NCBI GenBank assembly: GCA_900696645.1
Contig: CAADGV010000030.1
Coordinates: 118,767 to 182,766, forward strand
Source: an uncultured Chlorobiota bacterium
GTDB taxonomy: Bacteria > Bacteroidota > Ignavibacteria > UBA10030 > UBA6906
DNA: 64,000 bases
Reading direction: 5' to 3'
Shown here: positions 61,493 to 64,000 of the stretch, one piece after another
Position numbering within the stretch: the stretch's first letter is position 1
Layout: each line of letters begins with the position of its first letter
Notes under the pieces: generated by a model
What the model was told of the DNA's origin: nothing
The model's database searches: none
Seen by the model: the letters and a program-made list of their open reading frames with translations, nothing else
Position numbers and translations under genes: made by a program

Positions 61493-61517
61493 AAAGCCCC
61501 GCACAGGGCGGGGCTTT
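61493..61517 (-). terminator. Strong intrinsic terminator downstream of the inserted element
   Basis: A perfect 10-bp GC-rich stem (61493-61502 with 61508-61517), a five-base loop and, on the minus strand, TTTTTGTTTG behind. It sits just beyond the left inverted repeat of the 61544-62544 element and reads in the direction of the T9SS gene that ends at 62545. Before insertion it was probably that gene's terminator. Confidence 0.85.
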
Positions 61518-61540
61518 GAGGTTTGGAAAACTACTAACTA

Positions 61541-62119
61541 TTAGGACATTTGTCCGGTTACTGGTTTTTTGACATTTTTGCGTTGTTGACGTTGCCTCAG
61601 CGGTGGAGCTTTGTCCGGAACCACAACGCGAAGGTCCGGGTGAAAATCTTTTACTAAGCGCAGGTACTGCCGTATCGTGTTCATGCTACGCCCGGTAATC
61701 TGACAAATCGAAATTGCACTGTGCTTCTTCTTCACTAACTGCAGCACCTGTTCGTATGCTTTGATGTAGCGATCAACGGCTGCTTGTGTGTGACCGGTCT
61801 TCAACACAATATCCGCAGGGGATACGGCACGTTCGTACAACGAGATGATGATGCCTTTGTGCGTCGGGTTGCTGCCTTGATCCAGCACGTAGCCCTTCAT
61901 CGGCAGTACTTCACCCGTCTTCTCGAAATACGCCTTCAAATATTTTCCAATCGTCGTCAAGGCGCGGTTCATCAACACACTCAGTTCCGCACCACTCAAC
62001 AATCCACCTTGCACTTTGGCGCTCTTCAGCAGACGCACCATCGTCTCGATATCCCGTGCTTCACGATGACGATAGTTGGAGTTGCGATCTCCCTTCTTGA
62101 AATAGATCCGCCGCTCCAC
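61541..62119 (-). CDS. DUF1670-like protein, intact C-terminal part
   Basis: 192 residues from GTG 62119, which follows AGGAGG. It contains helix-turn-helix-like repeats: AELSVLMNRALTTIGKYLKAY, then PADIVLKTGHTQAAVDRYIKAYE, then ICQITGRSMNTIRQYLRLV. Repeated HTH units suggest DNA binding. The last codons (GQMS and stop) are written by the inverted repeat that bounds the element. If translated alone, this part would still carry most of the DNA-binding modules. Confidence 0.6.
   Translation of the reverse strand: MERRIYFKKGDRNSNYRHREARDIETMVRLLKSAKVQGGLLSGAELSVLMNRALTTIGKYLKAYFEKTGEVLPMKGYVLDQGSNPTHKGIIISLYERAVSPADIVLKTGHTQAAVDRYIKAYEQVLQLVKKKHSAISICQITGRSMNTIRQYLRLVKDFHPDLRVVVPDKAPPLRQRQQRKNVKKPVTGQMS
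61544..61555. repeat. Left terminal inverted repeat
   Basis: GGACATTTGTCC, the exact complement of the copy at 62533-62544. It is itself a near-palindrome (GGACA/TGTCC), so each end can also form a small hairpin. It encodes the last codons of the DUF1670-like frame. Confidence 0.7.
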
Positions 62120-62456
62120 ATCCTCCTGTCGTGTGACCCGTGATCCGCTCGATGTCGCTGTACGTCTTCTGTTCCAAGTACAAGCCCACGATCCATACTT
62201 TGTGGCTGATCCCTTTGCCGATGTCCCGCTGAAGGCCGCGCAAGTACAGTTTCAGATTCTGCCTGCTTGTCAAAGAACGTCTCCTGCACCACCTCCAGAA
62301 TCCCGCGGCTCTCTCGCGGCGATAATTCAAACTCGTGTTCTAACTCGTGAACAAATTGTTGCTCGCGCGTCTTCTGGCGCAACCGTCCATACTCTCGTTG
62401 TCGGTGAATGGACCGACGACCCTGTTGCCGTTGCATCTGTTCTCCATTGTCTAACT

Positions 62457-62481
62457 CCTGCCTGCCCGTCCGGCAGGCGGG
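62457..62481. repeat. GC-rich palindrome (GCCTGCC-type dispersed repeat)
   Basis: GCCTGCC (62460-62466) pairs with GGCAGGC (62472-62478). This short hairpin, which reads LPDGQAG in one frame, is a known type of dispersed palindrome in many environmental genomes. It lies in the leader of the DUF1670-like gene. Confidence 0.6.
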
Positions 62482-62532
62482 CATCGGCGCTCAAGGTAAC
62501 AACCTCGAACGCCGTTTGCAAGGAAAGTAGGA

Positions 62533-62544
62533 GGACAAATGTCC
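62533..62544. repeat. Right terminal inverted repeat
   Basis: GGACAAATGTCC, complement of 61544-61555. The T9SS gene stop codon (TAA on the minus strand, 62545-62547) directly adjoins it. Confidence 0.7.
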
Positions 62545-64000
62545 TTATTTGAGAAGAATCATCTTCTTAATGGTCGAAAAATCTTTCCCGCTTGATGTCC
62601 TTGCTTCAAGCCGGTAGAAGTACACGCCGGTGGCAACCTGCACGCCGGAAAGACTTTGTCCGTTCCATACAGCATCGTATGTACCAATACCCTGTACCCC
62701 GTTGAACAGCGCTGCCACCTCCTGACCGAGAAGATTGTATATCTTCAACGCTACAGTTGACTGTTCGGGGATAGCATACCTGATTGTCGTTGACGGATTG
62801 AAGGGATTTGGATAGTTCTGCGAGAGAGAAAACTCACTCGGCAGCACGTTGCCGACCGGTTCCACTGAGGTCGTGGTCAATTGGAATGCAATGCGTGAGT
62901 TCGCTTCGGGCATTGCTGCAAGAGCGTTCTGCACCGTGTTGTTGAACGTCGCGCTATTGGCCGTCTGCTGAGAAAGAAGTTCGCATACTGCCGGAACGGC
63001 TGAAATCGTCGGTGCATTGAGGCCCAGTGTGTACGTGAACGTTGCGGTTCCCGGGTCCATTGGGCCGTAAACAAATTCTATCTTGTTGGATGTCTCATAC
63101 AGCTTCACTTGGAAATTCATGCTTCCGGCCCCGGAGCTCGAGAAACTCCGTACCCCGATCCACTCAACAGTCAGCACGCGGTTTGGTGCACTACCGTCGA
63201 CCTGATATTTCATCATGTTGGGCTGCAGAGTTCCGGTGGGGAAGATGAGGTCATCGTACAGCGGGCCAAGCGCAAGAAGGGTTCCGGTCGTGGCGGTGAA
63301 CTGCGTGTTCTGATATCCGTACGCAGCGGTGCCCGATCCTGTTGCTGCCGACGAGGAAAAATCGAGGAACCCGTTAGTTGAAGCGCTGAAGGAGGTATAA
63401 TCAACTCCTATATAATTGAAGGTGAAACCGATTGGAGTTGATGCGCTCCGGTTATCGTCAATGCTTGCCGCGTTGCGCCATGCAGCAAAGGAGTTGCCTG
63501 TTGACGAAATGGAAGTGTATGTGATTCCTGTGGAGCGTGTTATGCTGAAGTCGGTAAGGCAGGGTACGGCAACTCTCTTGAATGTGATATTGAACGTCTG
63601 CGTGGAGGCCAGGGAGTCAGTACCCGAATAAGCGTACACCCTCCATTGCCCGACAATGGAATCTCCGATGGCCACTCCCAACCCGGCTATAAGTGAGTCA
63701 AGCTGGGATGTCCGGAACGTGGCAGATGTATCCAATCCTGCAGGAATATTCAGTCGAACAGTTCCTGCAAATGTTGGTGTTGCAAACTTCCACCTGTAGG
63801 ATGCGCCATCTCCCGATTTGCGCCACACTATTTTGACGGGTGTTGTGCTGACAGCATTTGTCACGACTGTCGTTCCCGTCGGCGGCGAAACCAGGCTGAA
63901 GGCCGAGAGCACCGGCCGTCCGCGTTTCAGCGTGATTGCCCTTGGACCGTTGGATGATTTCAGAGAATCGTTTGCCGGCGGGTTGTTTCTGAACGCCCAC
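62545..64000 (-). CDS. T9SS-secreted protein, 5' end beyond the window
   Basis: The frame is open through the window edge (WAFRNNPPANDSLKSS just before a GTG at 63912), so the gene begins outside and only the last 485 residues are seen. The visible part has an Ig/fibronectin-like region (VSPPTGTTVVTNAVSTTPVKIVW in parts; YRWKFATPTFAG), a beta-rich domain with FNYIGVDYTSFSASTNGFLDF that recalls nidogen-like or PEP-type exported proteins, and a T9SS tail (QNYPNPFNPSTTIRY, LLGQEVAALFNGVQ, GVYFYRLEAR, KMILLK). Surface or extracellular role; function unknown. Confidence 0.85.
   Translation of the reverse strand, partial: WAFRNNPPANDSLKSSNGPRAITLKRGRPVLSAFSLVSPPTGTTVVTNAVSTTPVKIVWRKSGDGASYRWKFATPTFAGTVRLNIPAGLDTSATFRTSQLDSLIAGLGVAIGDSIVGQWRVYAYSGTDSLASTQTFNITFKRVAVPCLTDFSITRSTGITYTSISSTGNSFAAWRNAASIDDNRSASTPIGFTFNYIGVDYTSFSASTNGFLDFSSSAATGSGTAAYGYQNTQFTATTGTLLALGPLYDDLIFPTGTLQPNMMKYQVDGSAPNRVLTVEWIGVRSFSSSGAGSMNFQVKLYETSNKIEFVYGPMDPGTATFTYTLGLNAPTISAVPAVCELLSQQTANSATFNNTVQNALAAMPEANSRIAFQLTTTSVEPVGNVLPSEFSLSQNYPNPFNPSTTIRYAIPEQSTVALKIYNLLGQEVAALFNGVQGIGTYDAVWNGQSLSGVQVATGVYFYRLEARTSSGKDFSTIKKMILLK

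What the first reader, a model, noticed from the sequence alone, without database searches (positions are those of the whole stretch)
61544..62544. Putative mobile element with DUF1670-like gene, inverted repeats and a TTA target duplication
A 1001-bp segment is bounded by perfect 12-bp inverted repeats with TTA on both outer sides. It holds just one gene, of a family of unknown function with repeated HTH units. It separates the stop codon of a T9SS gene from a strong same-direction terminator, which is what a recent insertion would do. I know of no insertion element described with DUF1670 as its only gene.
Basis: partly seen in the sequence, partly recalled or inferred. Interest (0 to 1): 0.75.

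Follow-up and report, generated by a model that had tools for sequence, protein, structure and literature searches.

The report
Decayed DUF1670 element at secretion-gene end
The segment is the internally deleted corpse of a small two-gene mobile element with no recognisable transposase; intact relatives insert at the last codon of type IX secretion (T9SS) cargo genes and carry a replacement codon end and stop, so the host gene is left intact.

Summary
The element spans 61537-62548 (minus strand). It is a dead copy of a ~1.75-1.85 kb element with two DUF1670 genes (A and B); two internal deletions removed ~830 bp. Its ends are ATAA-GGACATTTGTCC and GGACAAATGTCC-TAATAGT: 12-bp near-palindromic subterminal repeats with unequal extensions. 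The flanking TTAs belong to those extensions and are not a target duplication. Congeners with an empty site show that the duplication is 2 bp. Most relatives (34 of 40 sites) sit at the last Lys/Arg codon of T9SS C-terminal-domain genes. The element's ATAA/ATAG rebuilds codon and stop, and the original Lys/Arg codon plus stop is found displaced beyond the far end (29 of 33). One genome has at least 4-5 copies, identical over the ~130 bp sequenced at each end, behind unrelated T9SS genes. Other loci show 23-bp solo sites and a nested insertion. Gene A's ribosome-binding site pairs with the element end, probably silencing read-through. Lineages with different end palindromes carry diverged A/B pairs, so A+B most likely drive transposition. 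No catalytic domain was recognised and nothing was tested at the bench.

The parts
61537..62548 (-). Whole element (1012 bp), a decayed copy of a ~1.83 kb two-gene element
   Evidence: Ends match intact elements L026, L027, L028, L040; boundaries set by the empty site
62533..62544 (-). Gene-A-side subterminal inverted repeat GGACATTTGTCC (near-palindrome)
62545..62548 (-). Gene-A-side terminal extension ATAA; it also supplies the last A and the TAA stop of the T9SS gene
61544..61555 (-). Gene-B-side subterminal inverted repeat GGACAAATGTCC
61537..61543 (-). Gene-B-side terminal extension TAATAGT
62549..62550 (-). Target dinucleotide AA (first two bases of the last Lys codon of the T9SS gene)
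61531..61536 (-). Displaced original codon and stop, now TAGTAG (probably AAGTAG with one mutation); its first two bases are the degenerate second copy of the 2-bp duplication
   Evidence: by comparison with 29 of 33 sites that read Lys/Arg codon + stop
62112..62436 (-). Remnant of DUF1670 gene A (residues 1-56 and 154-203 of the L026 homologue; frameshifted, ~282 bp deleted)
61541..62137 (-). Remnant of DUF1670 gene B (C-terminal part, from residue ~100); its stop now lies in the TAATAGT extension
62434..62544 (-). Gene A leader, predicted to fold so that the end repeat pairs with the ribosome-binding site and ATG
   Evidence: z-scores -3.2 to -10.2 in intact relatives
62545..63999 (-). Host T9SS-CTD gene (ends IKKMILLK-stop), open at the window edge
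   Evidence: Pfam FlgD_ig just over its cut-off, CHU_C and Por_Secre_tail just under theirs
61493..61517 (-). Intrinsic-terminator hairpin, presumably of the T9SS gene, separated from it by the element
   Evidence: I4; hairpin followed by a T run (L110)

Best explanation
The feature is the remnant of an insertion-sequence-like element that moves by its two DUF1670 proteins. Shown by sequence: the element has 12-bp near-palindromic subterminal inverted repeats with unequal extensions (ATAR on one side, TAATAGT or an 8-bp sequence on the other). It inserts in a fixed orientation, with a 2-bp duplication, inside the last codon of T9SS-CTD genes (..AARATGNTNNTNNTN|AA|R-stop), and it restores that codon and a stop codon with its own ATAA/ATAG end. 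Inferred: A and B, which are arrays of helix-turn-helix units, bind the palindromic ends and the conserved CTD DNA. They then perform, or directly recruit, strand exchange at a 2-bp core, probably through a circle joined as GGACAAATGTCC-TAATAGT-AA-ATAA-GGACATTTGTCC. Read-through mRNA from the T9SS promoter folds so that the end repeat masks gene A's ribosome-binding site, which would keep the element quiet when it sits behind an active gene. Recombination or deletion between the two palindromes leaves 23-bp solo scars. The window copy has lost most of both genes and should be inert alone, but both ends are intact.
For: Empty site: the L027/L064 copy interrupts a non-T9SS gene that is uninterrupted in four congeners and in a related genus; comparison gives TTGTA|AA|CTAAACC against TTGTA-AA-ATAA..TAATAGT-AA-CTAAACC. 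Multicopy: in G030, four contig starts carry the same left end behind four T9SS-CTD gene ends (the three readable as long ORFs have unrelated cargo), and five contig ends carry the same right end, identical over 127-130 bp. Displaced Lys/Arg codon plus stop at 29 of 33 far ends; AA with Lys and CG with Arg on both sides. Nested insertion of two lineages at one T9SS gene (L029). The target pattern finds 32 sites in G000 and 29 in G030 against 2 and 0 for the control, and unoccupied T9SS ends lack the palindrome. Intact elements contain only A and B. Palindrome sequence differs by DUF1670 lineage: GGACA/CGACA, TATCA/GGTCA, GCCATATGGC. RBS masking: z -3.2 to -10.2.
Against: No catalytic domain was recognised in A or B by Pfam, NCBIfam or PHROGs, and structure searches match only helix-turn-helix domains. 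They could therefore be end- and target-binding partners of a host enzyme. The circle and its excision have not been observed. Solo sites might be deletions unrelated to the element's own activity. Six of 40 sites are not at T9SS genes.
Confidence: 0.76

Rival explanations
1. A and B are DNA-binding architects, and strand exchange is done by a recombinase encoded elsewhere in the host, as with Xer-exploiting elements.
For: No catalytic domain recognised; models are HTH arrays.
Against: Elements occur in FCB-group MAGs (Bacteroidetes/Ignavibacteria, Marinimicrobia, KSB1) and in an archaeal-labelled MAG. A core of 2 bp does not fit Xer dif sites. Gene A alone keeps about 20 invariant residues across lineages.
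Confidence: 0.17
2. The DUF1670 genes are passengers between the ends of a non-autonomous element moved in trans by another transposase, for example an IS110/IS1111-type DEDD enzyme, whose end layout is similar.
For: IS1111-group elements also have 11-13 bp subterminal repeats with 7 bp and 3 bp extensions and strict site specificity (PMC11187229).
Against: Every intact element has the same two genes and nothing else. Palindrome sequence changes together with DUF1670 lineage. A 2-bp duplication is present, whereas IS1111 adds no bases.
Confidence: 0.06
3. DUF1670 genes are ordinary neighbours that regulate T9SS genes, and the palindromes are their operators.
For: HTH proteins, palindromic sites, constant position behind T9SS genes.
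Against: Empty site, identical multicopy ends, displaced codon and stop, nested insertion, insertion into a non-T9SS gene. Most T9SS ends lack the palindrome.
Confidence: 0.01

Closest known systems
IS1111/IS110 group (DEDD transposase, seekRNA/bridge RNA)
   Same: 11-13 bp subterminal inverted repeats with unequal extensions (7 and 3 bp in IS1111); strict, orientation-specific target (PMC11187229)
   Different: Two DUF1670 genes instead of a DEDD transposase; 2-bp duplication; extensions 7 or 8 bp and 4 bp; no long non-coding region in the CGACA lineage
Integrases that use 3' ends of tRNA or protein genes, and Tn7 behind glmS (from own knowledge)
   Same: Uses a conserved gene end as a harmless site and leaves the gene functional; integrases likewise restore the gene end
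   Different: No integrase or Tns genes; the site is a motif shared by dozens of T9SS genes per genome rather than one locus
IS200/IS605 elements (from own knowledge)
   Same: Palindromic ends, fixed orientation next to a host motif, RBS-masking 5' leader
   Different: Inverted repeats present, 2-bp duplication, no Y1 HUH protein recognised
Pfam DUF1670 (PF07900)
   Same: A and B are members (E 1e-39 to 1e-60 in intact copies)
   Different: Listed as unknown function; no paper in the PMC library held here mentions DUF1670 or PF07900

Membership tests
DUF1670 (PF07900) | Match to the Pfam profile above its cut-off | tested here: met
   window ORF 117 bits against a cut-off of 25; intact A and B 134-205 bits
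Insertion sequence (general) | Multiple copies at different sites with the same ends | tested here: met
   G030: 4 left and 5 right ends identical over ~130 bp, at different flanks
Insertion sequence (general) | Empty site in relatives | tested here: met
Insertion sequence (general) | Encodes an identifiable transposase | tested here: inconclusive
   Only DUF1670 and HTH matches; structure search shows HTH only
IS1111/IS110 | DEDD (RuvC-like) transposase | tested here: not met
   No such match to A or B in Pfam or NCBIfam
IS1111/IS110 | Subterminal repeats of 11-13 bp with 7 and 3 bp extensions and no added bases (IS1111) | tested here: not met
   12-bp repeats and a 7-bp extension are met; the other extension is 4 bp and there is a 2-bp duplication
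IS1111/IS110 | Guide RNA from a non-coding region | not tested
   A structured leader of ~90-115 nt exists in the GGACA lineage, but no search for target pairing was made
IS200/IS605 | Y1 HUH transposase | tested here: not met
   No such match to A or B
Serine or tyrosine recombinase elements | Recombinase catalytic domain | tested here: inconclusive
   No profile match; a weak HTH-only structural match to a serine recombinase (rank 48)

The most novel reading that the evidence does not exclude
DUF1670 proteins A and B are themselves a recombinase of an undescribed catalytic type. The pair defines a new class of mobile elements, spread over several phyla, whose FCB members recognise the DNA encoding the T9SS sorting tail and rebuild the codon they break.
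Probability: 0.5. Interest if true: 0.9.

Novelty: new variant of a known kind. Interest (0 to 1): 0.8.

Why it matters
It gives a likely role (DNA transposition) to a Pfam family of unknown function and adds a kind of element without a recognisable transposase. It also shows a safe-harbour strategy that, to my knowledge, has not been described: targeting the conserved end of a large protein family, with dozens of sites per genome, while restoring codon and stop. If A and B act alone, they would be a new site-specific recombination system with a short, known target.

Tried and rejected
TTA or TATT as the target duplication: rejected, because these bases are conserved parts of the ends in unrelated insertions, and the empty site shows 2 bp. 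The palindrome as a native feature of T9SS gene ends: rejected, because most unoccupied ends lack it. Direct orthologue of the window's T9SS gene in the family to find its own empty site: none found. Phage, plasmid and IMG/VR origin: no match. A full second copy in the window's genome: none by nucleotide search. Model of gene B: weak (pLDDT 68), no significant fold match. Model of gene A: pLDDT 80, HTH matches only; this does not show that the N-terminal part lacks a known fold. MAFFT/RNAalifold of the gene A leaders misaligned the short CGACA-lineage leaders and gave no useful consensus; single-sequence folds were used instead. Methanosarcina DUF1670 loci could not be reached.

Full report
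Observation. The 12-bp inverted repeats at 61544-61555 and 62533-62544 are present, and they are part of a longer imperfect repeat (23 nt, 83%). The ORF between them matches DUF1670. The minus-strand gene at 62545-63999 ends IKKMILLK-stop and carries a C-terminal T9SS-type domain. A terminator-like hairpin follows the segment at 61493-61517.

The window copy is a wreck of a two-gene element. tblastn with the two genes of an intact relative (L026, genes A of 284 aa and B of 280 aa) places A residues 1-56 and 154-203 and B residues 100-275 in the segment, in different frames. Alignment with L026, L028 and L040 shows two internal deletions, about 282 and 554 bp, while both ends are kept. Intact elements in the GGACA and CGACA lineages are 1733-1855 bp, with A and B overlapping or abutting and no other gene.

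It is mobile. (a) In genome G104 the element (L027/L064) interrupts a conserved non-T9SS gene. Four congeners and a related genus keep that gene whole, and comparison shows that AA is present once in the empty site and on both sides of the inserted DNA. (b) In G030, four contig starts carry the same left end, identical over 130 bp, behind four T9SS-CTD gene ends; the three that read as long ORFs carry unrelated cargo. Five contig ends carry the same right end, identical over at least 127 bp, with different flanks. That explains why the interior is missing from the assembly. (c) In L029 two lineages are nested at one T9SS gene.

The target. Over 40 sites examined, 34 have a T9SS CTD tail upstream. 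The base before the element's ATAR end is always the second base of the last Lys (AA) or Arg (CG) codon in those genes. Beyond the far extension the next six bases are a Lys or Arg codon followed by a stop at 29 of 33 sites. A random hexamer would be so in under 1% of cases (8/64 x 3/64; somewhat more in AT-rich DNA). In both Arg cases, L040 and L035, the duplicated dinucleotide is CG instead of AA, which supports a real 2-bp duplication. The element therefore splits the last codon and supplies a new A plus TAA or TAG, and the old codon end and stop become an orphan downstream. The pattern AARATGNTNNTNNTNAARTRR finds 32 places in G000 and 29 in G030 against 2 and 0 for the reversed control. 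The 30 inspected are all T9SS CTD ends, and only three of them have the palindrome. The non-T9SS target in L027 mimics the CTD-end DNA, which suggests recognition of DNA sequence.

In the GGACA/CGACA lineages gene A is nearest the T9SS gene. In the TATCA/GGTCA lineages gene B is nearest and the far extension is 8 bp. A third group (L067, L068, L173) has GCCATATGGC palindromes and seems to sit within host inverted repeats; I did not follow this further. Solo sites (nine) keep ATAR-palindrome-extension plus the displaced codon. I read them as scars left by loss of the interior.

Control of expression. In the GGACA, CGACA and related lineages the end repeat is complementary to gene A's ribosome-binding site and start codon, and folds are far better than shuffles in five tested leaders (z -3.2 to -10.2). 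In the TATCA lineage the leader reads ATGATACC..GGAGGTATCATATG, with the same complementarity by eye. Masking of read-through expression is the natural reading, but it is a prediction. The same complementarity could instead be a DNA half-site for autoregulation.

Mechanism and limits. A and B match only DUF1670 and helix-turn-helix profiles; the gene A model (pLDDT 80) matches only HTH domains. The case that A and B drive the reaction rests on their being the only genes and on end palindromes that differ between DUF1670 lineages. The chemistry is unknown. The end layout resembles the IS1111 group (PMC11187229), but the DEDD enzyme is absent.

Distribution. B-type genes were found in 8 of 395 genomes of the phylum sample, and PF07900 in 16 of 245 of the class. 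Assembly breaks hide recent copies, as in G030, so these are lower bounds. No paper in the library held here mentions DUF1670 or PF07900; ISfinder and bioRxiv could not be searched.

Noticed in passing
G000:C4:129309-129326 (L042 at 4316): Another T9SS gene stop in the window's own genome is followed by GGACATTTGTCC but by no far extension or DUF1670 gene; probably a left-end remnant.
   Followed up: partly
G000:C14:2-178 and G000:C5:2-130: DUF1670 fragments at contig ends of the window's genome, of a more distant lineage; repeats may have broken the assembly there.
   Followed up: no
L029:2533-4250: Two DUF1670 elements of different lineages in opposite orientation, stacked behind one T9SS gene, each having reused the regenerated last codon.
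   Followed up: yes
L067, L068, L173: A third DUF1670 lineage with GCCATATGGC palindromes appears to lie between the arms of host inverted repeats (e.g. TTCTGCCCC..GGGGCAGAA), so its target may be hairpin loops.
   Followed up: partly
G030 contigs C3, C4, C13, C16, C7, C8, C9, C12: Nine contig ends of this nearly complete assembly fall inside the same unassembled element.
   Followed up: yes
L197 (G030:C6:209163): T9SS stop followed by GGACATTTATATAG, possibly a decayed scar.
   Followed up: no
L031: A contig labelled as an archaeal MAG carries a T9SS gene end with an intact-looking element; the record may be contaminated.
   Followed up: no
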